In this document: positions 6,501 to 18,556 of the stretch, piece by piece
How the letters are laid out: every line of letters starts with the position of its first letter
Position numbering within the stretch: the stretch's first letter is position 1
Assembly: GCF_021533835.1 (NCBI RefSeq)
Contig: NZ_JAKFYQ010000002.1
Location: forward strand, 558,001 to 622,000
Reading direction: 5' to 3'
Length of the DNA: 64,000 nucleotides
DNA from: Synechococcus sp. Nb3U1
GTDB lineage: Bacteria > Cyanobacteriota > Cyanobacteriia > Thermostichales > Thermostichaceae
Notes under the pieces: model-generated
The model's database searches: none
Seen by the model: the letters and a program-made list of their open reading frames with translations, nothing else
Told to the model about the DNA's origin: nothing
Program-made: the position numbers and the translations under genes

Positions 6501-8155
6501 ATGGCTGCTCACCCCATCGAAGTGCGCCGGCACCTTCAATCCCTGAGGCGTATGGAGAGCAAACCCAAGCACCCTGTCTCTGAACAGGGATCCCTCTCCG
6601 TACCAGGCAAGATCTGCGGTGTGGAGGCGAGCGATTCTGTCTCTTCTTCAACGTCGCACTATTTCCCCATGATCTTACAGGGCTTAGTCCTGGGGATAAT
6701 CGTCTGGTCATTGTCTGATCCAAGGGATCCCAGCACCTTTCGCTTGATCTATGCCAACCCCGCTGCTTCCCAGTTGTTGGGTTTTGAGTTGACGACCCAA
6801 TTGGGCCAGCGGATGGTGGATGTGTTCCCAGAGGTAGAGTCGCGGGGTATTTTGCGGCTGTACACGGACGTTCTATGGTCCGGCCAGCCATGGGAAGGCG
6901 AAGATTTAACCTACGGTGATGGACAAGTGGTCGAAAGTGTTTTCCAAGTTAAGGTTTTGCCTCTTGATGAATGCACTATCTGCACCATTTACGAAAATAT
7001 AACGGCAAAGAAACGGCTGGAGCAAGAACCTATAGCCCTTTTTGAACAAGAACATTCGGCACGAAAACAGGCCCAAGCCGCTGAAGCCAAAATCACAGCA
7101 ATTTTGGAAAGCATTACCGATGGTTTCTTCTTAGTAGATGCTGAGTGGAACTTTACATACTTAAACTCGCAAACAGAACCCCTTTTGGGTCGTAGCCGTG
7201 AGGAGTTGCTTTCATTGGTTTGTCTGGCCTACAACTGCTGCCCCTGAAAGAGCAAGCAAAATTTGAAGGGTTTCTAAAAGCCGTAGCCACAGGATCTCCA
7301 TTTGAGTTGGAAAGTCAGCATCAACGCAAAGATGGCACCTTAATTCTGGTGATTATGAGTGGCCGTTGTTTTTCGTTGCAGGGGGAGACCTACTTTCTAA
7401 TGGCGGTGCGGGATATTACTGAGAAAAAGCAACTCGTCGAAAATTTTTTTATTGATGAAAATTATGTGCGCGTTCACATCGACGCCAAGGTTGGGCCTTA
7501 TGTGGCGATCTCCGTTAGCGACACTGGCAGCGGGATCCCTCCCGAAATGCAGCAGAAAATTTTTGAGCCGTTTTTCACCACTAAACCCCTAGGGCAAGGG
7601 ACTGGCTTGGGGCTTTCCACCGTTTTGGGGATCATTCAAAGTCAAAGTCATGGTGGATTCATCAATGTCTACTCTGAGGTAGGGCAGGGCAGTCAATTCA
7701 AGGTTTACCTCCCCGCTGTCGAAAACGCCATTACCGTAGCCTATCGAGATCAGCAGAGGGAATTGCCCCGTGGACAGGAAGAACTGATTCTGTTAGTGGA
7801 TGACGAACCAGACATTCGAGAATTGACCCGTTCGACTCTGGAGCATTTCGGCTACCGCGTACTTACAGCCAGTGAAGGAACGGAGGTGATTGTGCAGTTC
7901 GTCCAACATCAGAAAGAAGTCGCCCTAGCTTTAGTAGATATGATGATGCCGGTTATGGATGGAGCGCAAACTATTCGTGCTCTTTTACAATTGCAACCAG
8001 ATTTGAAGGTAATTGCCATTAGCGGACTATTAACCAATGGACATAGTGCCGCCTTGGCCAGCAGCAATGTGAAGGCGTTTCTCAGCAAGCCTCATACCGC
8101 CGAAAAATTGTTGACAACCTTGCAGCGTGTGTTATGCCCAGGGGGATCCCGTTAG
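6501..8155 (+). pseudogene. Decayed hybrid PAS-histidine kinase-receiver gene
   Basis: Two overlapping frames together resemble a soluble hybrid sensor kinase. Frame one (6501-7247) has a PAS-like domain (about residues 55-160), a short helical linker and the beginning of a second PAS (ILESITDGFFLVDAEWNFTYLN). The frame is lost near 7205-7225. Frame two resumes in the PAS (FELESQHQRKDGTL, DITEKKQ) and then jumps directly to the end of a histidine-kinase ATPase domain ([23 protein letters not shown]). A receiver follows with VDDEPDIRE and the phospho-acceptor region LVDMMMPVMDG. The HisKA dimerisation domain with its phosphorylated histidine and the ATPase N box are absent. So there is one frameshift plus an internal in-frame deletion of roughly a hundred residues or more, and the gene cannot act as a kinase. 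Confidence 0.82.
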
Positions 8156-10344
8156 CCCAACCAAAATTGGGGTCGCCCCCGCTGCCGCAGATAAAAGGCC
8201 AAATTGGGGAAGTAAAATGCCCCCCAGATTCCAGTCGCAACCATACCCGCCCCAAACAGGATCAGCCACAGGCGCGGACGGCTGTGAATTTTTTCGTTGC
8301 CCACCTGCACATAGGCCAGATCCAACCAGGCGGTATTGCCCCGGCGAAACCAGCCCACCAGCTTGACCCGTTTGCCCATTAAAGCGCGGAGCCGTTTCAG
8401 ACCAGAAAAAACATTGCCCACCGGCCCTAAAGGAGAGGTAAAACGCACCGGGATCAAGCCTGTTGCATCCTGTAGCTTCAGCTCTGCCCCTAGTTGATAA
8501 CCGGAGCGCCCTAACCCCACTAATTCCCCTTCCAGTTCCACCCACTGGCCTCGACGGGGATCCGCATAGGGATCCGCAACCAAAGTCAGCACATCCGCTG
8601 GCCTGGCCTCTAAGGTGCGTGGATACATCAAGCCCGCCTTGGCCCACAGCCCCACCCCGTAGCCCGCCACCACCGCCGCCACGATCACCTTCGGATCCAA
8701 CCGATTTTGCATGGCCAAGTATAGGATCAACCCCACCAGCCAGCCGATCAGGATCCCGACCACCTCGGCAGCATAAATGGCCAGATCCAGCCAAAATTTG
8801 CCTTTCAAGCGGGCACTATCCAACCTTTGCCCGTCTTTGCTGTTGAGTCCCAGCTCAATGGGCAAGCGCAAGCGTTCTCCGTAGCCAGCCAAGAGATTGA
8901 GTCGGTGCCCCATCAATGGGTGGCTGGAATTGACCTGCATCCACCGCGCCCAGGGGTTGTACTGATCCCAGAGAAACACTCGCCCGGCCTGCCCCGGATC
9001 CTCAACGCGATTGGCTGCCCCGGCAGCAGTGGTAGTCTTGAAATCCAGGAAGCTAAACAGGCGGGTGCAGTGCAACAGGGAGGAGGGTCGCTTGATCGTT
9101 TTGTGGGCTTCTTGGATCCCATCGGCACTTTTGAGCAGAGCGCTGATCAACCCGTTGGGATTGCCCGTTACCTCGATCGCAAAATGGTCGGCATGATAGG
9201 TACCCAAGCGACACAAGAAAAAAAGTGGGTAGGACAACAAAGTGTAAACCAGATAGAGCAGAGGGGCGACATGGCCGATCAAGTCTTTGCGCCGGCTCTG
9301 GCCCCGCCCTTCCCCCAGTTTGCTCACCTGCTCTAAAGCCAGGTAAATCAGTTGAATCGGGGATCCCAGCAGCGTCATGAACAGGGCATCCCCATTAACT
9401 ATTCGCCCTAAAGCCTGAGCATACACAGCGGCGATTTCGTCCTCGGAAAGTTGCTCCAGCAGCCCTTGGGTGACTACAATTCGGCAGCCATCGGCCAGGG
9501 TGCCATAGACAAAAGCGAGCGGCCCAGCGTTCGGGATCACCCCGAGGCGAGGTTGTTTCACCTGTTTCTGGGCGCAGATCCGTTGCAGGAGGCGGGCGGT
9601 TTCGGGACTGTGGCGCTCGATCTCACTGAGACTGGCCCAGCGCAATTTGTGTAGCCGCTGGTGGAGCTGATCCATCAACCAAGGGGCAAAAAACAAAATG
9701 CCCACCCCAAAGTTGACCGCTAAGCTACCGGCTACCAACCCGCGCAAGCCATTGCGCAACCAGGGCAGCAAGCCCCGCAACCCAGACAGTTGCCGTGGAA
9801 ACCCCAAACGGTTGAAATCCAATTGTCCGCCCACCAGCACAAAGCAAAGCCACCAGAGCAGGGCAATCGCCACCACAAGGGATCCCCACTTGGCCCAGCG
9901 CAAGGATCCGGCCCGATCCGGCAAGGGAATCTTCATGCCCAGTTGGGTAGCCCGTTGATGAGAAGACGGGGATCCCGCATCGGGTTGAGTCCGAGGGGCT
10001 GGCTCTACAGGGAGGGGGGGAGCAGAACGCTTTTCGGCAGCTTGAGCGGGTGAAGGATTTGAGAGCTTTTCTAGGACGGGCAGGCGGGGCAGGATTTTTT
10101 GGGCCCAGCTTTGCACTTGTGGGTTGGGGTGTTGTAGCAGTTCGAGGCAGAGGGAACGCGCCTTTTGCATTAGCCCCGATTGATGGTAGGCCCTGACCAG
10201 GTTCATTTTGGCTTCTAGGATTTCGCCCTCGGGTTGGGCTGCCGGGATCCCTTGGGCCAAGTAATCTTCAAAAAGTTGAATGGCTTCTTGAAAACGGCCC
10301 TGCCGCAGCGCCTCTTTGCCTGCCCGAACGGCATCGGAGATCAT
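8152..10344 (-). CDS. TPR and M48-like membrane protein without zinc ligands
   Basis: This 730-residue protein begins with TPR-like helices (residues about 1-90) and a Pro/Ala-rich linker. Hydrophobic spans follow near 155-172 and 205-225, then a region homologous to M48 (HtpX-like) membrane metallopeptidases, more spans, an OB-like segment (about 600-690) and a last span. The M48 homology is clear from LGVIPNAGPLAFVYG, VVTQGLLEQLSEDEIAAV and ADHFAIEVTGNPNGLISAL. The zinc motif HExxH is replaced by Gln310-Ala-Leu-Gly-Arg314. The third ligand, normally Glu in an ExxAD context, is Thr382. It therefore cannot be a classic zinc protease and is probably a scaffold or pseudoenzyme. Its 3' end overlaps the decayed kinase by 4 bp, tail to tail. 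ATG at 10344. Confidence 0.8.
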   Translation of the reverse strand: MISDAVRAGKEALRQGRFQEAIQLFEDYLAQGIPAAQPEGEILEAKMNLVRAYHQSGLMQKARSLCLELLQHPNPQVQSWAQKILPRLPVLEKLSNPSPAQAAEKRSAPPLPVEPAPRTQPDAGSPSSHQRATQLGMKIPLPDRAGSLRWAKWGSLVVAIALLWWLCFVLVGGQLDFNRLGFPRQLSGLRGLLPWLRNGLRGLVAGSLAVNFGVGILFFAPWLMDQLHQRLHKLRWASLSEIERHSPETARLLQRICAQKQVKQPRLGVIPNAGPLAFVYGTLADGCRIVVTQGLLEQLSEDEIAAVYAQALGRIVNGDALFMTLLGSPIQLIYLALEQVSKLGEGRGQSRRKDLIGHVAPLLYLVYTLLSYPLFFLCRLGTYHADHFAIEVTGNPNGLISALLKSADGIQEAHKTIKRPSSLLHCTRLFSFLDFKTTTAAGAANRVEDPGQAGRVFLWDQYNPWARWMQVNSSHPLMGHRLNLLAGYGERLRLPIELGLNSKDGQRLDSARLKGKFWLDLAIYAAEVVGILIGWLVGLILYLAMQNRLDPKVIVAAVVAGYGVGLWAKAGLMYPRTLEARPADVLTLVADPYADPRRGQWVELEGELVGLGRSGYQLGAELKLQDATGLIPVRFTSPLGPVGNVFSGLKRLRALMGKRVKLVGWFRRGNTAWLDLAYVQVGNEKIHSRPRLWLILFGAGMVATGIWGAFYFPNLAFYLRQRGRPQFWLG

Positions 10345-10767
10345 CAGCTTGCTCCTGTCGCGGATCTGCCTGCTACCCCAGCTTACCCAGGGATCCGACC
10401 TAGGGATGCCTTATCCCCCCGAAGAGGGTAGTTGAGAGACCAGCAAATCTATCTGGGTGGGGTAGCCCGTTCGGGATCCCAGATGAATTTTGTCTATCCA
10501 TTTATCTATCCACTGTCTATCCACGCCGATGGCGGCACTCCCGTACCTTATGGCAGCCAGCAGAAAAAATACACTTGTTGGCTCAGTTAGGTTGCCAAAA
10601 CTCAAGGCAACATCTGCAAATATTCCGAGAAAATGACTTAACCGAGCCATGCTCAAATCTTAAACTTATCTTGGTTGGCATCTCACTTTTTCTCGGTCAG
10701 GATTGTGGTCTGCGCAAAAAATCAAAGAACAAGAAGAGTACAATAGTACAATAGGAAGATTACAACA
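10345..10767. other. Divergent spacer with short repeats
   Basis: No gene recognised in 423 bp. It separates two divergently transcribed genes and holds three TCTATCCA repeats (listed separately). There is a small inverted repeat GTTGCC...GGCAAC at 10591-10611. A tandem AGTACAAT pair lies at 10737-10752, just before the ribosome binding site of the phosphoesterase. Confidence 0.5.
10493..10523 (+). promoter_or_regulatory. Three 8-bp direct repeats, Pho-box-like
   Basis: TCTATCCA occurs at 10493-10500, 10505-10512 and 10516-10523, with spacers of 4 and 3 bp, about one helical turn apart. From established knowledge, the cyanobacterial SphR (PhoB-type) box is three YTTAAYYW units with 3-bp spacers; each repeat here fits six of eight positions. 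The rightward gene is a secreted phosphoesterase, 245 bp away. The leftward gene starts 149 bp away. Confidence 0.4.
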
Positions 10768-12774
10768 ATGAGCCGCTACGTCAAACAGATAACTCTTAGA
10801 TTAGGTCTTGTTGTCGTTTTTATAGCAGCTTTTTTCTTTTATACGCAATCCACTGGAGAGTCGGTCAAGTTTAGTGCTCCCTTTGACAGAGCTGTTGCCA
10901 GCTCTGGTACAGAAGTCTCGGTCTCGGGAGAGACGGTATCGGGGATTGTTTTTGAGGATTTGAATCAGGATGGCGAACATCAAGCAGATGAGCCTGGGAT
11001 CCCGGAGATCATTGTCTCCAATGGGCGTGATGTGACCCTAACGGACTCGGAGGGAGCCTATAGCCTGCCCGTCTTCGATAACATGACCGTTATGGTCAGT
11101 AAGCCTTCTGGCTACAGAGTGCCCCTAAATGAAGACTATGTGCCGCAATTTTCCTACATCCACAAGCCAGAGGGTACACCCACACAACTTCGCTATGGTG
11201 GGATAGCCCCAACCGGGCCATTGCCAGACTCTGTTGATTTTCCCTTAACTCGCAGCGAGGAAACAAGCTCCTTCTCCTGTGTGGTGATGGGAGATACACA
11301 GCCCTACTCCAACACCGAGATAGGCTATGTCCGGGATACGATTGTCAAAGATCTTCTTGCCCAGGATCTCTCTTCCTCAAGGTGCATGATTTTGCTGGGG
11401 GATGTGATTGGGGATGACCTCAACCTATTGCCGAGATTTATGAATGTGATGGGAGCCGTTGGTTTGCCTCAGTATTACATCCACGGTAACCATGACTACG
11501 ACTTTGATGCTAATTCCGATGAGGACTCGGCAGACAGTTGGCGCCGCATTTATGGCCCCAATTACTTTAGCTTTGAAATTGGCGACGTTTTCTTCGCTGT
11601 GCTGGATAATGTGGTTTACCCCTGTGGTGAGGCCGATAGCGGTACGGGTGGCCGTGAAGCTTGTACTCGGGCAGATGCGGATCCCACCTACAATGCCCGG
11701 GTTCCTGAGCAGCAGATGACTTGGTTGCAGAACACTTTGGAGTATGTGCCCAAGAATAAGTTGGTGGTGCTGATGCATCACATTCCGCTGGTGTCTTTTA
11801 TCGACAGCAATACTGGGCGCCACCAAACCGATAATGCCAATGATCTCTATCAACTCCTGGAAGGGCGACCGGCTTTATCCCTTTCGGGACACACACACAC
11901 CTACGAAATTCTTGCCACAGGAGAATCCTACAAGGGCTGGCAGGAGCAAGTGGAGGTTTCCCGCCTTCCTTTTGACCATATCGTGGGGGGCGCACCTTCC
12001 GGTAACTGGTGGCAGGGGGATTTTAGCTTCGACGGGATCCCGATGGCCTTCACCCGTGGGGGCACGCCTCCCGGCTACTTGATCCTCCAATTTGACGGTG
12101 CTGACTACCGCGTAGACTTCTATGCCTCTAATCAAGCTCAGGATCGGAAGATGGCTTTATCATTTAACACCCCAGCCTTCCGCTCCTGGTTTACCACCCT
12201 CTGGCAATGGCAAGACGAAAAAGGCCCAGGCACTGAGGAGATCCCTCCCCTGACGGTAAATGATCTGGAGGATCTGAAGCTCTTTACCCCGGATGAGCTA
12301 GCGGCAGGGGTTTACTTGACGGCCAATGTTTGGAGCGGGGAACGCAACACCGAGGTCATGGCCAGCATCGATGGGGGCGATCCCCAGGAGATGGTTCGGA
12401 CTCAGGCGGGAGAAGGGGAAGATATTTTGTCGGGGGCAGAGTATGCGGATCCTTTCGCGGTACTCCGCCAGCTAACCATTGGGCGCTACGCCTATAAGAG
12501 TACCTCTGGAGATGAGCGGGCTCAGGGATTTGAGATTTGGCAGGGATCCCGTTTTGGGCCGGTAGCTCCTCAGGGTATGGCCAGTTGGGGTATTGCCAAC
12601 AGTTCCACCCATCTCTGGCGGTTGCCATTGTCTGCCGATCTGCCAGTGGGATCCCATGTGGCCAGGGTTACGGTGAAGGATCGCTACGGGCGGGAATTTG
12701 TGGAGCAGATCCCCTTCGAAGTGCGAACAGAACGACCCTTCAAGTACTGGGATAATGCGCTTTGGGAGGGGTAG
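10768..12774 (+). CDS. Secreted calcineurin-like metallophosphoesterase
   Basis: A 668-residue protein with a basic N-terminus and a hydrophobic span (about residues 11-26), so it is exported or membrane-anchored. An Ig/SdrD-like N-terminal domain follows (VSGIVFEDLNQDGEHQADEPGIP, close to the MetallophosN type). Then comes the calcineurin-like phosphoesterase core with all five usual blocks: VVMGDTQ, LLGDVIGDD, HGNHDYD, MHHIPL and SGHTH. The C-terminal 200 residues match the MetallophosC type. Such enzymes hydrolyse phosphomono- or diesters using two metal ions; the substrate here is unknown. It ends in tandem stops TAG TAA. The three repeats 245 bp upstream may link it to phosphate starvation, which is inference. 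Confidence 0.85.
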   Translation: MSRYVKQITLRLGLVVVFIAAFFFYTQSTGESVKFSAPFDRAVASSGTEVSVSGETVSGIVFEDLNQDGEHQADEPGIPEIIVSNGRDVTLTDSEGAYSLPVFDNMTVMVSKPSGYRVPLNEDYVPQFSYIHKPEGTPTQLRYGGIAPTGPLPDSVDFPLTRSEETSSFSCVVMGDTQPYSNTEIGYVRDTIVKDLLAQDLSSSRCMILLGDVIGDDLNLLPRFMNVMGAVGLPQYYIHGNHDYDFDANSDEDSADSWRRIYGPNYFSFEIGDVFFAVLDNVVYPCGEADSGTGGREACTRADADPTYNARVPEQQMTWLQNTLEYVPKNKLVVLMHHIPLVSFIDSNTGRHQTDNANDLYQLLEGRPALSLSGHTHTYEILATGESYKGWQEQVEVSRLPFDHIVGGAPSGNWWQGDFSFDGIPMAFTRGGTPPGYLILQFDGADYRVDFYASNQAQDRKMALSFNTPAFRSWFTTLWQWQDEKGPGTEEIPPLTVNDLEDLKLFTPDELAAGVYLTANVWSGERNTEVMASIDGGDPQEMVRTQAGEGEDILSGAEYADPFAVLRQLTIGRYAYKSTSGDERAQGFEIWQGSRFGPVAPQGMASWGIANSSTHLWRLPLSADLPVGSHVARVTVKDRYGREFVEQIPFEVRTERPFKYWDNALWEG

Positions 12775-12785
12775 TAAGGATCCCT

Positions 12786-14063
12786 TCACCGCCTCAGTAG
12801 GCGCCGCCGTAGACGATCCAGGGCCGTTTGAGCGCTCCACCAGCGCACCCCTTCTCTACCGCGCAAGCTGCCGAACTGGTACTCCTGTACCTCTGTTTTC
12901 CCGTCGGGATCCGCTAAACCCAGATACACCAGACCCACCGGCTTGGTAGCGGTGCCTCCATCCGGCCCGGCAATACCCGTAATGCTCAAGGCCCAATCGG
13001 AGCCGAGGGTCTGCTTTGCTCCAAGAGCCATTTGGGCAGCGACGGGCTTGCTGACGGCTCCGTATCGTTCCAGAGTAGCTGGATCCACCCCCAATAGGTG
13101 CTCTTTGATGCGGTTGTCATAGGCCACCACCCCACCGAGGAAGTAACCCGAGCTGCCCGGGATCCCGGTGAGCAACTGCCCCAGCAACCCGCCCGTGCAA
13201 GACTCGGCCACTGCCAGGGTTTGTCCTTGTTTTAAGAGCAGCTCTCCCACCACCGAAGCCAAGGTTGCCTCATCGCTGCCGAAGTAGTCTTCTCCGGCAA
13301 TTTCCAAGATCTGCTGGATCACCGGGGCGATCAACGCTTGGGCCTGTTCGCGGGTGGGGGCCCGTCCGGTCACCCGCAGGCGCACTTCCCCTTGGCTGGC
13401 ATAGGGAGCTACCGTGGGGTTTTTGCCCGCCAACAGGGATCCCACCCGTTCGGCCAAGGTGGATTCGGGAATGCCCCAATGGCGTAACACCTGGCTGTGA
13501 AAGACCTCTTGTCCCCAACCGACGGAGCGTAAATAGGGCACGGCAGTCTCCTGCCACATTCTGTGCATTTCTCGGGGTACCCCAGGAAAGGTGAGGATTC
13601 TCAGGTTAGGCCTAGGTTGCCAGATCAACCCACAGGCGCTGCCGACCGGATTGGGCAATACCGCCGCTCCCTTGGGTAACAAGGCTTGCTTGCGATTGCT
13701 AGACGAAGGGACAATCCCCCGCTGCCCGTACTTTTGTAGGATTTCTTCCCACACTTGGGGGTGCTCCACCATCTCCACCCCAAAGAAGGAAGCCAGCGCC
13801 TCATGGGTGAGATCATCCGGGGTCGGTCCCAAACCCCCTGTAGTCAAAATCAGGCTGGAACGGCCACAGGCCACCTCTAAAGCGTGGTGAATGCGGGCCT
13901 CGTTATCCCCGACCACCGTTTGGTAATGGTGCGGGATCCCCAGTTGCGCCAGTTCGGTGGCTAGATATTGGGCATTGGTATTAGTGATCTCCCCCAAAAG
14001 CAACTCCGTTCCGATACAGAGGATCTCAGCCTCTTGGGGAATAACGGCTTGCGGCGGGATCAT
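12786..14063 (-). CDS. cinA: CinA-like protein (NMN deamidase / ADP-ribose pyrophosphatase family)
   Basis: The 425-residue product joins the two usual CinA domains. The N-terminal MoaB/COG1058 domain starts AEILCIGTELLLGEITNTN and contains TTGGLGPTPDD. The C-terminal NMN amidohydrolase (PncC-type) domain contains VAESCTGGLLGQLLTGIPGSS and ITGIAGPDGGT. Family members recycle nicotinamide mononucleotide, and the N-terminal domain can act on ADP-ribose; the old name comes from its link to competence. I start at ATG 14063. A further upstream in-frame codon at 14108 would add 15 residues unlike the family. It is convergent with the phosphoesterase, with an 11-bp gap. No defect is visible. Confidence 0.93.
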   Translation of the reverse strand: MIPPQAVIPQEAEILCIGTELLLGEITNTNAQYLATELAQLGIPHHYQTVVGDNEARIHHALEVACGRSSLILTTGGLGPTPDDLTHEALASFFGVEMVEHPQVWEEILQKYGQRGIVPSSSNRKQALLPKGAAVLPNPVGSACGLIWQPRPNLRILTFPGVPREMHRMWQETAVPYLRSVGWGQEVFHSQVLRHWGIPESTLAERVGSLLAGKNPTVAPYASQGEVRLRVTGRAPTREQAQALIAPVIQQILEIAGEDYFGSDEATLASVVGELLLKQGQTLAVAESCTGGLLGQLLTGIPGSSGYFLGGVVAYDNRIKEHLLGVDPATLERYGAVSKPVAAQMALGAKQTLGSDWALSITGIAGPDGGTATKPVGLVYLGLADPDGKTEVQEYQFGSLRGREGVRWWSAQTALDRLRRRLLRR

Positions 14064-14163
14064 ACTTGGCCTCGTGCTCAGGTTAGTCGCAAGTTTGGCA
14101 CTCCACAAGCCTACTAGCTTGCTTCCATTTGCGGTAGAAGTGGGCTTTATGGCGATTTCACTG

Positions 14164-14270
14164 TACAGCCTTTTCCAGCGTTATCTGATACAGCAGATTC
14201 AGGTCAATCCTTTGCTCCATAATGTTTTTTGCCTAGCTCAAGAGCCTACGTAAAGTCAGAAAAGGCTGTA
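14164..14270 (+). repeat. MITE-like element, copy 2 (best preserved ends)
   Basis: A 107-bp non-coding element bounded by perfect 12-bp inverted repeats, TACAGCCTTTTC at the left and GAAAAGGCTGTA at the right. The outermost TA on each side is what a TA target duplication would leave. The interior is nearly identical to the reverse-oriented copy at 53294-53422 over about 80 bp. Confidence 0.88.
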
Positions 14271-14543
14271 AGGATCCGACCGATCCTCAGTTCAAACTTT
14301 TCATCGTCAGTCCCAGTTTGTTCGAATCCTATCGCAATCCCATTCAATCGGCTGATGTGCTAATCTGCTTGTTGAAATTGCTTGTTGAAATTGCTGACCT
14401 TCCCAACTCAGGAACAATCCATCTGTGGATCTGGACTCCTACCGCATCCAAAGCTGCGCTAATTCCGCCACAAATTTCAGCAAGCTGAGGCTGAGCCAAA
14501 AGGAGCTCTCACCCCTGAATTGGAGGTGCCAATCCGATCATTG
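14271..14543. other. Spacer with a tandem 13-mer
   Basis: No gene recognised between the MITE and the TetR gene. TGCTTGTTGAAAT is repeated exactly twice head to tail at 14366-14391. A TTCGAAT at about 14321 mimics a tRNA T-loop but has no paired stem. Confidence 0.45.
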
Positions 14544-15200
14544 CTAGTCGGCACCGGCAAACGCATGATTTCCCGCCTGCATCACCACCAAATTCACCAG
14601 GCTATCCACCAAGCGCTCTGCTTCCATAGGAATTACCTCTTTGCCGTGCAACATTTCCTGCACAATCATGTAATGCACCAACGAGCCGAAAAAAATTCGT
14701 GCGACGGCCTCTGGATCTTTCAGCTTTAGGTCGGGATAAGAGCTTAGGTACTCCGAGATTACGTTCAAGCCATGGATCTCTATGTGGGTTAGAAAGGTTT
14801 TGCCCAAGTTTGGAAAACGGCCCGACTCTGCTATTAAAAGTCGCATGAAGGGAAGAATAAACTCGTCTTCAGAAACTTTATGGATTATACTTAGGGCAAT
14901 TTGCTTTAATCCAGCTTTGAGATCGTAGGCACTATTATCTCGAAATTGGTTATCCGAAACATTATCCTGAAGAAGCTCTAAAAAAACAGACATTCTTTGC
15001 TCAGTGAACTGATCAATCAAGGCAACAAAAAGATGTTCCTTGTCTTGAAAATGACTGTAAACAGTTGCTTTGGAAACCCCTGCCGAACTCGCCACTTTAT
15101 CCATGCTAGTACCCGCATAGCCATGTTCCAGGAACTCTTGGAGAGCTCCCTGGAGAATGGCCTCTTCTTTGGTCAGAGTGGTAGTAGGCATTGTTAGCAT
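14544..15200 (-). CDS. TetR/AcrR-family transcriptional regulator
   Basis: A 218-residue TetR-type dimeric repressor. The N-terminal helix-turn-helix is typical: ILQGALQEFLEHGYAGTSMD, KVASSAGVSKATVYSHFQDK and EHLFVALI. The C-terminal ligand-binding part resembles the AefR-like group, with LRLLIAESGRFPNLG. I favour the ATG at 15200; a second ATG at 15191 would shorten it by three residues. Earlier in-frame codons up to 15299 precede any family similarity. It lies 200 bp downstream of the double-glycine-leader gene on the same strand, so the two could share a transcript or a regulatory circuit. The ligand and targets are unknown. I found no clear inverted-repeat operator just before this gene. 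Confidence 0.86.
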   Translation of the reverse strand: MLTMPTTTLTKEEAILQGALQEFLEHGYAGTSMDKVASSAGVSKATVYSHFQDKEHLFVALIDQFTEQRMSVFLELLQDNVSDNQFRDNSAYDLKAGLKQIALSIIHKVSEDEFILPFMRLLIAESGRFPNLGKTFLTHIEIHGLNVISEYLSSYPDLKLKDPEAVARIFFGSLVHYMIVQEMLHGKEVIPMEAERLVDSLVNLVVMQAGNHAFAGAD

Positions 15201-15400
15201 CTCAATAAGTTGTGGGGAAGGCGCTAAAGACCCCGACAAGGTTGAGATCCCAACCGTGATTGCAAACTCATGGAAAGGACGGATCTCATCGGTTGCCAAC
15301 GAACAGGGGAAGCATAGAGTAGAGCAAGGAAGGGTAGTCCTAGTCTAGTGGAACAAGATCCAAAGGGATCCAGATAGCCCAGGCTGCTCTCTGTGGAGAC

Positions 15401-15607
15401 CTAGAAGCGGAAGATATTGAATAGCCGGAAGAAGCGAGGCGGCAAAGGCTGAGGATTGAGGGCAACGTTATTGAGGGAGCTCGAGAAGGCACTAGGCAGC
15501 CCCCCGACGATGATAATACCCCCTGAGATCGTTTCAAGTTGGTCATCGCTGAGGGCATCAGCTTCATTCAGGCTATCTGAGTGAGGGCTGGGATCCTGTG
15601 CAGACAT
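15401..15607 (-). CDS. Small peptide with double-glycine leader (candidate bacteriocin/RiPP precursor)
   Basis: A 68-residue protein in two clear halves. The first 30 residues are strongly acidic and end ALSDDQLETISGG, which fits the leader recognised by C39-peptidase ABC exporters (LS-x2-EL-x-x-I-x-GG). The remaining 38 residues have no acidic side chain. They contain VALNPQPLPP and end in the cationic aromatic RFFRLFNIFRF. The ATG at 15607 follows a good AGGAG by about eight bases, which argues for a real translated gene. There is no cysteine, so lanthionine or disulfide bonds are excluded. No C39 transporter or modification enzyme lies in this window, and its nearest same-strand neighbour is the TetR gene. 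I recall the NPQPLPP motif in small bacterial proteins of unknown function. A secreted peptide is inference. Confidence 0.75.
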   Translation of the reverse strand: MSAQDPSPHSDSLNEADALSDDQLETISGGIIIVGGLPSAFSSSLNNVALNPQPLPPRFFRLFNIFRF

Positions 15608-15663
15608 TTTTAGACTCCTAAACGGGATGAACCGATCCTATAGGGCTATTACTGTCTGTTCTC

Positions 15664-15696
15664 TGATACGGATCACCCCTTGATATGGATCACCCC
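15664..15696 (-). promoter_or_regulatory. Paired 16-bp direct repeats upstream of the leader-peptide gene
   Basis: On the plus strand, TGATACGGATCACCCC at 15664-15679 and TGATATGGATCACCCC at 15681-15696 differ at one base and are 17 bp apart centre to centre. On the coding strand they read as two GGGGTGATCC-type half sites 57-89 bp before the ATG at 15607, where a regulator would act. The direct-repeat layout suits two protomers on one DNA face less exactly than a palindrome would. Confidence 0.5.
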
Positions 15697-15812
15697 GCTT
15701 CTGTGATCATCCCCAGACTGAACTGTTGATTAAAGATCCCTCTTCCCCTCTGAGATTCCCTGGCTGAGTCAGAAGCCCTATACTGCCAGCCCCTTTCGGC
15801 AAAATCCTGGCG

Positions 15813-16169
15813 TTGCATTTTCCCCTCGCCCTGATTATTGCTTTCCTGCCCCCTGCCTGTGCAAACCCTTCTAGACTTACCAACCTGGAACGGATGAAAG
15901 ACCAAGCCGGGCTCACTCGGGATAACGGTTACGATCCCACCCTCTACCAACGGGATCCAGTTCTGGTGGTGGATTTGGTGCGAGATAGTGCTGTCTAGGA
16001 GCCAGCCTCAACTTCCACCCCATCTCGACTTGAGGCCATTTTTCGCTGGGCAGAAAGCCGGGAAGAACTGTTTTTGAGGCAGATCTTGCTGAGCATTAGC
16101 TTTTATCAAGAGCAACACAATTCACAAGAACTGGTAAATAGGGGGTCTGAAGGACAGAGGCGGCCTTGA
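15813..16169 (+). pseudogene. Remnant of a small exported protein, interrupted by TAG
   Basis: A frame starting at TTG 15813 opens with a signal-peptide-like stretch (LALIIAFLPPACA) and continues for 61 codons to a TAG at 15996-15998. The same frame then stays open for 57 more codons to TGA at 16169 and still reads like protein (RLEAIFRWAESREELFLRQI). I do not recognise the family. The continuous frame through a single amber codon suggests a recently broken gene. Without homologues this is tentative. It is not the same frame as the DUF2834 remnant that follows. Confidence 0.4.
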
Positions 16170-16236
16170 TGCATCTCCAAACTGGAGAAGAGATCTCTGA
16201 AAAGGGATCCCGGAGCCGGTCCAAACGGAGGGAGGG

Positions 16237-16406
16237 ATGGGTATCCGGCGGGTTCTGGAGCTGCTGTTTCAAAATCGGATCTCCAGCTTCTTTGGCATGG
16301 ATGTACTGGTATCCTCACTGGCGTTGTGGATTTCTATCTCTAGCGAGAGATCCCGACTGGGCATGAAACGGTGTATGTGCTGAGCAACCTGGCGGGGGAT
16401 CCCTGA
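16237..16406 (+). pseudogene. DUF2834-like membrane protein fragment, frameshifted
   Basis: The frame from ATG 16237 encodes RVLELLFQNRISSFFGMD followed by VLVSSLALWISIS and RLGMK, the pattern of the last two helices of DUF2834 membrane proteins. It then terminates at 16381. In the next frame the expected continuation VYVLSNLAG is present and ends at TGA 16404-16406. So the gene lacks its 5' part and carries one frameshift near 16370. The last stop overlaps the ATG of the following small gene (TGATG). Family recognition is from memory of the motif. Confidence 0.6.
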
Positions 16407-16606
16407 TGTCCGTTGAATTCATCGTCAAACAAGCACTCCAGCGGGGGATCCTCCCCGACGATCGGCTCAGCCACCTGCTGCACCTAGCGGAGAATGAGTC
16501 CCTGAGCACCTACGAATTAAATCTCATCGATCAGCTTTTAGAGGCTCTGCGATTGGGACAAATCCGGATTCAGCACGACACACCTCAAGATCCCGTTTCT
16601 CTTTAG
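16406..16606 (+). CDS. Conserved small cyanobacterial protein of unknown function
   Basis: A 66-residue, mostly helical, soluble protein (begins SVEFIVKQALQRGILPDD; central LSTYELNLIDQLLEALRLGQI). It resembles a short cyanobacterial family that starts with a similar F-I-V-K-Q segment and ends in a conserved leucine-rich helix. I know no function for it. The ATG overlaps the stop of the DUF2834 remnant by one base, so it may once have been translationally coupled to it. There is no membrane segment and no cysteine. Confidence 0.6.
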   Translation: MSVEFIVKQALQRGILPDDRLSHLLHLAENESLSTYELNLIDQLLEALRLGQIRIQHDTPQDPVSL

Positions 16607-16856
16607 AAAGACTTAGAAAGACCCAGTGAGATCGGCAATGATTGGAGGGATTACTTGACGGTCTTTTCCCACCTCCGCCAACCGATTCAGAAGCCGTTCC
16701 CCTGCTGTTTCTGAAATGTGCAGCAGATTGTTGGGGCGGAAATTACTCTAAAAAATTGGGACTTAGGTTGGGGATTTCCCCATTCGGCTAGACTTTCACT
16801 AAGCTAGTATTAAGTCTACAAGTAATTTTAAAACAATTTCTTCCGAGGAGTTGTGT

Positions 16857-17556
16857 ATGACTACCTTTGCCGATCCAACCCAAAAATGTATGTCCGCTGC
16901 CTTCAAGGAAGAACGTAAGTTGCAAGATTGTATTCAACGACTCTTGAAGCGTGGAGTTCCCAACGATCGCATCTCTATTATTGGACGAAACTTCCAAACC
17001 GAAGCCAAAATCACCGGGTTCATCACCCGTAAGGAGGTGATTATGGATGGTCTGACCAGTGGTGCTATCTATGGATCCCTATTTGGATCTTTACTGGGGG
17101 CTTTGATGGGGGTAGGAGTTTTGTTTGTGCCCTTTTTTGGGACCAGGGTTGGGATCGGCCCTGATCTCACTGGGGATGCCACAGGATAAAGCAGCGATTT
17201 ATCAAACCCGTGTGCAGGCAGGTGAGTTTTTGCTGGTGGTGCAAGTGCCCGAAGAAAAATCAGGTGAAACCTACCTGCTGCTCCAGAGTTCTGGTGGCGA
17301 AGAGCTTTCGATCAATGATTTAAATCTTCCCAGTGAGCCTGAGGGATCCCTTACACCAGAAACCATTTCACCAGACATCCGTTCTGATTTATCTGAAGAA
17401 GCGCAGCAAACCTTGCAGCAAACCTTTGTAGAGGCCTACAATCAAAGTCGTCAGGATAATTATGATCATAGCAATGCTTTGCTAAGGGCTTGGGACAAGG
17501 TTAAACAGTTTTTCGAGCGGGATGACAAGGGGATCTTTTCCAAACGTAAATCCTAA
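16857..17556 (+). pseudogene. Stress-type glycine-zipper/ChaB-domain gene with +1 frameshift
   Basis: Two frames make up one gene. The first (ATG 16857, after CGAGGAG) encodes an N-terminal domain like that of general-stress 17M-type proteins ([20 protein letters not shown]). A glycine-rich hydrophobic hairpin follows ([20 protein letters not shown]). The frame fails just after VPFF. The second frame continues with the expected [20 protein letters not shown] and YQTRVQAGEFLLVVQVPEE. It ends in a ChaB domain (DLSEEAQQTLQQTFVEAYNQ, ALLRAWDKVKQFF). Removing one T from the run of six at about 17132-17137 restores the whole frame. That is typical of a homopolymer sequencing error, but a true mutation or slippage is possible. 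It lies just upstream of cbpA. Confidence 0.8.
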
Positions 17557-17632
17557 GATCTCTGAAATCTTTGTCCCTGTCTAGCTAGCTGGTTTCAACT
17601 GGATTCCGGTTCGCAGGCTTAGGAGGCTACCG

Positions 17633-18556
17633 ATGGCCGCCAGTGACTTCAAGGATTACTACCAAATCCTGGGGGTAAGCAAGGATGCGTCTCCCGATGA
17701 GATCAAGCGTGCCTATCGCAAGCTGGCTCGCAAATATCACCCGGATGTCAACCCTGGCGATCAGCAAGCGGAGGAGCGCTTCAAAGCCATCAACGAAGCC
17801 CATGAGGTGCTCTCGGATCCGGAAAAACGGCGCCGCTACGACCAGTTTGGGCAGTATTGGCAGCAGGGGGGATCCCAAGCCAGTACTGCCACTGGGTTTG
17901 AGGGCTTTGGGCAGTACGGCAGCTTTGATGACTTTATTAACGAGCTGCTGGGGCGCATGGGATCCCGCCAGGGGTACACCACAGGGTTTGCTGGGTTCAG
18001 GCCAGTGGATCTGCCGGGGCAGGATGTAAAAGCTAGCCTCACCCTTACATGGCCGGAGGCTTTTGAGGGTTGCCAAAAGCGGCTGACCCTCAACGGCGAA
18101 ACCATCACCCTTCGCATCCCCCCTGGTGCCAAGCAGGGCAGTCGCCTACGGGTCAAAGGTAAGGGGCAGGTCAGTCCCTTTGGCAGCCAGCAACGGGGGG
18201 ATCTTTTTCTCAACCTGGAGCTTCCACCCCATCCCTTCTTTCGGTTTGAGGGGGATGACCTACTTTGTGAGATCCCGATCACTCCGGATGAGGCTGTCCT
18301 GGGAGCTACTGTGGAGATTCCCACTCCTACGGGCAAAGTCCAGCTCAAGATCCCCGCTGGGGTGGATAGTGGCCAGATCCTACGGCTGCGGGGGCAAGGC
18401 TGGCGGGATCCCGAGGGGCAGCGGAGCGATCTACGGGTGCGCCTCAAGGTGGTTACCCCCAAAACCCTGAGCTCAGAAGAGCGGGAACTCTACGAAAAAC
18501 TTCGACATCAGCGGCAGTGGGATCCCCGTCGCTCACTGAAGGAGGTGCATCTATGA
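17633..18556 (+). CDS. cbpA: CbpA-type DnaJ co-chaperone
   Basis: A 307-residue type II J-protein. The J domain (residues 5-70) contains [13 protein letters not shown] and YHPDVNPGD with the essential HPD that stimulates DnaK ATPase. A Gly/Phe-rich linker follows, then two DnaJ C-terminal beta domains ([39 protein letters not shown]), with no zinc finger. It would deliver unfolded clients to DnaK and may bind DNA as E. coli CbpA does. The ATG at 17633 follows AGGAGG. The stop overlaps the ATG of the next gene, a CbpM homologue, which supports the CbpA assignment over DnaJ proper. Confidence 0.92.

What the first reader, a model, noticed from the sequence alone, without database searches (positions are those of the whole stretch)
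15401..15607. Orphan double-glycine-leader peptide with proline motif and cationic aromatic tail
The 68-residue product splits into an acidic leader ending DDQLETISGG and a core without any acidic residue that carries ALNPQPLPP and ends RFFRLFNIFRF. A good ribosome binding site supports translation. It has no Cys, so known lanthipeptide and disulfide classes do not fit, and no transporter or modifying enzyme is adjacent. It could be a secreted antimicrobial or signalling peptide of an unstudied type, with the TetR gene as its possible regulator.
Basis: partly seen in the sequence, partly recalled or inferred. Interest (0 to 1): 0.7.

Follow-up and report, generated by a model that had tools for sequence, protein, structure and literature searches.

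The report
Exported Gly-Gly leader peptide, conserved core
A photosynthetic bacterium carries a small gene for a peptide that is almost certainly trimmed and exported from the cell; it belongs to an unnamed peptide family shared with Bradyrhizobium, and its exported part is unusually conserved, which points to a conserved partner outside the cell rather than to an ordinary antibiotic.

Summary
The ORF is real, on the minus strand: 15404-15607 plus stop, 68 aa, RBS AGGAG, dN/dS 0.17 against a congener. It splits into a textbook double-glycine leader (ALSDDQLETISGG) and a 38-aa Cys-free core, IIIVGG-x11-VALNPQPLPP-RFFRLFNIFRF. It is no singleton. The same architecture (GG leader, IIIV[SG]G, invariant VALNPQPLPP, aromatic tail) occurs in four cyanobacterial genomes and patchily in Bradyrhizobium. 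Pfam, NCBIfam and PHROGs do not name it. In one Bradyrhizobium the peptide follows a co-directional NHLP-type HlyD / C39-ABC / ABC / cNMP export cluster. The window's genome holds the same exporter type, with a LanM, on another contig. In other Bradyrhizobium the same IIIVSG + LNPQPLPP module sits behind an apparent Sec signal instead, independent evidence that it works outside the cytoplasm. Most likely: an NHLP/C39-exported peptide, processed at GG, acting extracellularly through a conserved motif (assembly, adhesion or recognition) more probably than as a hypervariable bacteriocin. Main caveat: the congener that keeps the peptide has no detectable C39 exporter. New variant of a known kind.

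The parts
15404..15607 (-). precursor peptide CDS, 68 aa (stop codon 15401-15403)
   Evidence: ortholog under purifying selection; family alignment A3
15518..15607 (-). double-glycine leader, residues 1-30 (MSAQDPSPHSDSLNEADALSDDQLETISGG)
   Evidence: matches the C39 leader pattern L(-12) L(-7) I(-4) GG(-2,-1); conserved in 10 family members; chance control
15404..15517 (-). predicted mature core, residues 31-68, 38 aa, +3, no Cys, no acidic residue
15500..15517 (-). IIIVGG motif at the start of the core
   Evidence: near-invariant in the family; 0 copies of the motif pattern in 653,366 aa of background ORFs
15437..15466 (-). VALNPQPLPP motif, invariant in all 10 aligned GG-family members
15404..15436 (-). 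cationic aromatic tail RFFRLFNIFRF
   Evidence: tail type kept, sequence variable; similar tail WLRNLIRNIFPF on another GG precursor beside an NHLP exporter (L175:4699-4869)
15615..15619 (-). ribosome binding site AGGAG
   Evidence: family members have comparable sites
15664..15677 (-). direct repeat GGTGATCCGTATCA upstream of the gene, possible regulatory site (copy nearer the gene)
   Evidence: conserved in G005; no copy in the window outside this pair
15681..15694 (-). direct repeat GGTGATCCATATCA, second copy, period 17
14544..15191 (-). TetR/AefR-like regulator downstream, co-directional (start chosen from the G005 ortholog); possible but unproven regulator
   Evidence: PF00440 6e-17, PF14246 5e-10; pair and about 210-nt spacing conserved in G005

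Best explanation
The gene encodes a ribosomal precursor peptide. A C39 peptidase-containing ABC exporter of the NHLP (NHLM) type, encoded elsewhere in the genome, reads the 30-aa leader, cuts after Gly-Gly and exports the 38-residue core IIIVGGLPSAFSSSLNNVALNPQPLPPRFFRLFNIFRF. The core carries no Cys and is probably not cross-linked. Outside the cell it works through two fixed elements, a hydrophobic beta-prone N-terminus (IIIVGG) and the rigid VALNPQPLPP segment, with a variable cationic aromatic tail for surface or membrane contact. The most likely role is cell-surface or matrix assembly, or recognition of a conserved partner, comparable to the GG-exported EbfG proteins of Synechococcus elongatus, rather than a classical hypervariable bacteriocin. 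Shown here: gene, leader, family, conservation, adjacency to the exporter in a relative. Inferred: cleavage, export, extracellular role. The choice among extracellular roles is open.
For: Leader matches the GG consensus and is conserved across two phyla while the regions around it vary. In Bradyrhizobium G637 the peptide lies downstream of co-directional HlyD - C39-ABC - ABC - cNMP genes; HlyD and both ABC proteins score above the NCBIfam cut-offs for TIGR03794, TIGR03796 and TIGR03797, the cNMP protein matches TIGR03896 below its cut-off. The window's genome has the same exporter set plus LanM on contig C3. Eleven of the 12 genomes tested that carry a GG member have a C39 match of E<1e-34. 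The same module follows an apparent Sec signal in G637, G753 and G780. The core is under purifying selection. Precedent: GG proteins EbfG1-4 need the C39 transporter PteB for efficient secretion and build biofilm matrix; EbfG1-3 form amyloid (PMC4997328; PMC9981879).
Against: G005 keeps the peptide but has no detectable C39 peptidase or exporter homologue; its 120-contig draft may miss it, or another route exists. The exporter is not linked to the gene in the window. No cleavage, secretion or function is tested. The AlphaFold model of the peptide is uninformative (pLDDT 56). ALNPQPLPP also occurs in many proteins without an export signal, so the motif alone does not imply an extracellular site.
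Confidence: 0.72

Rival explanations
1. Antimicrobial, class II microcin-like peptide: exported by the same route, the amphipathic aromatic-cationic tail permeabilises competitors' membranes.
For: GG leader, NHLP exporter type, +3 core with Phe/Arg tail; other GG precursors beside Bradyrhizobium NHLP exporters end in a similar WLRNLIRNIFPF; host Nif11-like GG precursors also end in cationic aromatic KIPKPKW.
Against: VALNPQPLPP is identical from cyanobacteria to Bradyrhizobium, whereas NHLP cores are described as hypervariable (PMC2887384); no immunity gene is recognisable next to the gene.
Confidence: 0.27
2. LanM-modified peptide: the LanM on contig C3 dehydrates Ser/Thr in the core before export.
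For: LanM (TIGR03897, 690 bits) is encoded beside the genome's only C39 exporter; the linker holds Ser/Thr in most members (SSS, TS); G329 also encodes a LanM-like protein about 7.5 kb from its peptide.
Against: No Cys in any core, so no lanthionine; no LanM homologue turned up beside the Bradyrhizobium peptides; the exporter beside that LanM was not found in G005 (LanM itself was not searched there).
Confidence: 0.12
3. Intercellular signal peptide whose level is read by a regulator, for example the downstream TetR.
For: TetR gene and about 210-nt spacing conserved in G005; Bradyrhizobium members often sit just downstream of a LysR gene; conserved upstream direct repeat.
Against: TetR is not next to the peptide outside this genus; TetR proteins usually bind small cytosolic ligands (own knowledge); no receptor identified.
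Confidence: 0.12
4. Full-length cytosolic small protein; the GG pattern is incidental.
For: G005 has no C39 exporter; 150-240 aa proteins without an obvious signal carry both motifs in reverse order.
Against: Leader conserved across phyla at the positions a C39 peptidase reads; adjacency to an NHLP exporter in G637; Sec-signal variant of the same core.
Confidence: 0.08

Closest known systems
NHLP / N11P (Nif11-like) double-glycine precursors with the NHLM export system (TIGR03793, TIGR03798; TIGR03794, TIGR03796, TIGR03797)
   Same: GG leader, same exporter type in the genome and beside a family member, precursors far from the enzymes, LanM in the export cluster
   Different: Short 30-aa leader with no significant NHLP or Nif11 match; core invariant instead of hypervariable; no Cys
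CTB family bacteriocin (NF038167)
   Same: Cyanobacterial GG leader; weak profile match to the leader and first core residues (18.1 bits)
   Different: Below the curated cut-off of 32 bits; the core motif is not part of that match
EbfG1-4 / PteB of Synechococcus elongatus PCC 7942
   Same: C39 ABC exporter and GG-leader small secreted proteins in a unicellular cyanobacterium
   Different: Reported to lack homologues elsewhere; encoded as a four-gene operon; sequence homology to the window peptide not tested here
Class II lanthipeptides / prochlorosins
   Same: GG leader, LanM plus exporter in the genome, substrates encoded far away
   Different: No Cys in the core, so no lanthionine rings are possible

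Membership tests
C39/PCAT double-glycine leader peptides | leader with hydrophobic -4, -7, -12 and GG/GA/AG at -2,-1 | tested here: met
   LSDDQLETISGG; conserved in 10 members; chance control
C39/PCAT double-glycine leader peptides | C39 exporter present in the genome | tested here: met
   G000:C3:150688, 1.7e-34; TIGR03796 1165 bits; not met in ortholog carrier G005
C39/PCAT double-glycine leader peptides | precursor next to exporter genes | tested here: inconclusive
   not in the window; yes in G637/L154
C39/PCAT double-glycine leader peptides | cleavage after GG and secretion | not testable with these tools
   needs an experiment
CTB family bacteriocin NF038167 | score over curated cut-off (32 bits) | tested here: not met
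   18.1 bits, E=0.0022
NHLP precursor TIGR03793 | nitrile-hydratase-like leader above cut-off | tested here: not met
   no match for the window peptide; 14.3 of 50.9 bits for the G329 member
N11P (Nif11) precursor | Nif11-type leader | tested here: not met
   no Pfam or NCBIfam match
Class II lanthipeptide | Cys plus Ser/Thr in the core for lanthionine | tested here: not met
   no Cys in any core
Class II lanthipeptide | LanM in the genome | tested here: met
   L011:14905-18354, TIGR03897
Class II microcin / bacteriocin | antibacterial activity and immunity protein | not testable with these tools
   no obvious immunity gene adjacent; not assayed

The most novel reading that the evidence does not exclude
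IIIV[SG]G-x(8-14)-VALNPQPLPP is a portable extracellular module. It reaches the outside by two unrelated routes (C39 double-glycine export and Sec), and its two motifs also appear together, in reverse order, inside larger DDWCG proteins. It would define a class of conserved-core exported peptides that bind a widespread partner or co-assemble with those proteins.
Probability: 0.4. Interest if true: 0.72.

Novelty: new variant of a known kind. Interest (0 to 1): 0.52.

Why it matters
GG-exported peptides are usually studied as hypervariable antimicrobials or lanthipeptides. This family keeps ten core residues identical between cyanobacteria and Bradyrhizobium and re-uses the module behind a Sec-like signal, so it points to a conserved extracellular function of NHLP exporters that has no name in the libraries searched. 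It also gives candidate cargo for NHLP exporters that lack a neighbouring precursor.

Tried and rejected
Pfam, NCBIfam, PHROGs and PDB sequence searches gave no significant family. A plasmid protein search and a viral-contig scan found no relative. No held paper contains NPQPLPP. AlphaFold on the peptide was low confidence (pLDDT 56) and was not used for fold search. AlphaFold on the larger DDWCG family (pLDDT 74, pTM 0.64) had no convincing PDB match (best E 0.12). Weak first-pass hits G033, G014 and G051 (E 0.02-0.09) were dropped, as were G293 and G300 at E about 2e-4. No additional GG precursor was recognised beside the host's LanM exporter cluster on C3. A TetR operator was not tested beyond noting direct repeats.

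Full report
Observation. The ORF exists at the stated coordinates on the minus strand: ATG 15607, last sense codon ending at 15404, stop 15401-15403. An AGGAG site precedes it by 7 nt. The product is a 30-residue acidic leader (7 Asp/Glu, no Lys/Arg) ending in Gly-Gly, then a 38-residue core with three Arg, no acidic residue and no Cys. The leader LSDDQLETISGG has Leu at -12, Leu at -7 and Ile at -4, as in known double-glycine leaders (own knowledge). A search for that pattern with an RBS found this ORF and one other, which is the tail of a long ABC-ATPase gene, in the window, and none in 25 simulated windows.

The gene is under selection. The congener G005 has a full-length copy next to the same TetR gene, with similar spacing. 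NG86 gives dN 0.10 and dS 0.59; residues 48-66 have four synonymous and no nonsynonymous codon changes. Four other congeners lack it.

A family, not a singleton. Most encode unrelated or larger proteins, but six encode 57-60 aa peptides of identical design, and a pattern scan of cyanobacteria gave another in G329. The alignment has an invariant LxxxxL..(G/A)G leader frame, then II(I/V/L)V(S/G)G, a variable linker of about 8-14 residues, invariant VALNPQPLPP, usually a basic residue, and a short Phe-containing tail. Profile searches found it in 4 of 390 cyanobacterial genomes, ignoring two weak hits at E about 2e-4, in 6 of 147 genomes of the genus of G637, two seed genomes and G637 itself included, and in no other of 385 genomes of that class. 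The genus is Bradyrhizobium, because the named records behind L024 and L056 (G633, G634) fall in it. The window's genome is a cyanobacterium: it has two PsaA/PsaB genes. The distribution is rare, patchy and cross-phylum, which suggests horizontal transfer (inference). Pfam, NCBIfam and PHROGs have no model for it; the best is CTB bacteriocin NF038167 at 18.1 bits against a cut-off of 32.

Exporter evidence. In L154 (Bradyrhizobium G637) co-directional genes run HlyD 17227-15953, C39-ABC 15928-13754, ABC 13757-10860, cNMP 10826-10290, then the peptide about 0.3 kb further on. HlyD and both ABC proteins exceed the NCBIfam cut-offs for TIGR03794, TIGR03796 and TIGR03797; the cNMP protein matches TIGR03896 at 126 bits, below its cut-off of 161. 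The window's genome carries the same HlyD, C39-ABC and ABC types, with a LanM, on contig C3. Haft et al. (PMC2887384) defined these models and noted precursors far from their enzymes and Cys-free cores. The host also has three Nif11-like GG precursors on contig C1 with Cys-free, cationic, Trp-ended cores; G005 has two ('Nif11-like' is by eye, since NCBIfam gave no hit at the threshold used). In sister Bradyrhizobium genomes the homologous exporter sits beside a different GG peptide ending WLRNLIRNIFPF, and on plasmid pCB82_1 beside others. Of 12 genomes tested that carry a GG member, 11 have a C39 match of E<1e-34; the exception is G005. G005 also lacks a homologue of the host exporter. This is the main weakness.

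A second route out. Bradyrhizobium G637, G753 and G780 encode proteins with what looks by eye like a Sec signal (for example MSPFSFVVILSSAVLATDFAFA-ADA) followed by the same IIIVSG ... LNPQPLPPR module. Finding the same core behind a different export tag is the best sequence-only evidence that the core works outside the cytoplasm. Both motifs also co-occur, in reverse order, in six 150-250 aa DDWCG proteins. The pattern G[IV][IVL][IVL]V[SGN]G is present in 12 of 117 NPQPLPP ORFs and in none of 653,366 aa of other ORFs of at least 150 residues from the same loci, a mechanical set that includes non-coding frames. What the pairing does is unknown.

Mechanism. I conclude that the leader is read and cut by an NHLP-type C39 exporter and that the unmodified 38-mer is released. 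The fixed VALNPQPLPP differs from the hypervariable cores described for NHLP antimicrobials, so I favour a conserved extracellular partner or self-assembly. The nearest experimental precedent is EbfG1-4 with PteB in S. elongatus: GG proteins that need the C39 transporter for efficient secretion and are required for biofilm; EbfG1-3 form amyloid (PMC4997328; PMC9981879). An antimicrobial role remains the main rival. LanM cannot form lanthionines here because no core has Cys. The TetR neighbour is genus-specific, so its role as regulator is open.

Limits. No biochemical data. The peptide model is low confidence. The organism behind L130 was assigned through its genus only. Operon structure is inferred from gene order. 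Family counts are from sampled genomes.

Noticed in passing
L011 (G000:C3:141000-160999), 7042-18354 +: The window's genome carries a complete NHLP-type export cluster with a 1149-aa LanM (cNMP, HlyD, C39-ABC, ABC, LanM) with no precursor recognised nearby; the other five genomes of the genus lack the C39.
   Followed up: partly
L014 (G000:C1), 7411-9311 -, and L197 (G005:C16), 9216-10255 -: Tandem Nif11-like GG precursors with Cys-free cores ending KIPKPKW in both species, although G005 has no detectable C39 exporter.
   Followed up: partly
L051, L083, L087, L096, L118, L120 and relatives (alignment A4): Unannotated 140-250 aa DDWCG/NPQPLPP protein family across Proteobacteria, Actinobacteria and others; some also carry GIIIVSG. 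No Pfam or PDB match; model mostly helical.
   Followed up: partly
window 15664-15677 and 15681-15694: Direct repeat GGTGATCCNTATCA, period 17, upstream of the peptide, conserved in the congener, no other copy in the window.
   Followed up: partly
L022, L060, L065, L078, L089, L111: Short proteins with apparent Sec or Tat signals carrying one or several ALNPQPLPP copies in diverse bacteria; the motif seems widely re-used in secreted proteins.
   Followed up: no
L199 (Bradyrhizobium sp. CB82 pCB82_1, record 175146-189491): NHLP exporter on a conjugative plasmid followed by near-identical GG-leader peptides (MIRELIDTELEVVAGG...) annotated as hypothetical.
   Followed up: no
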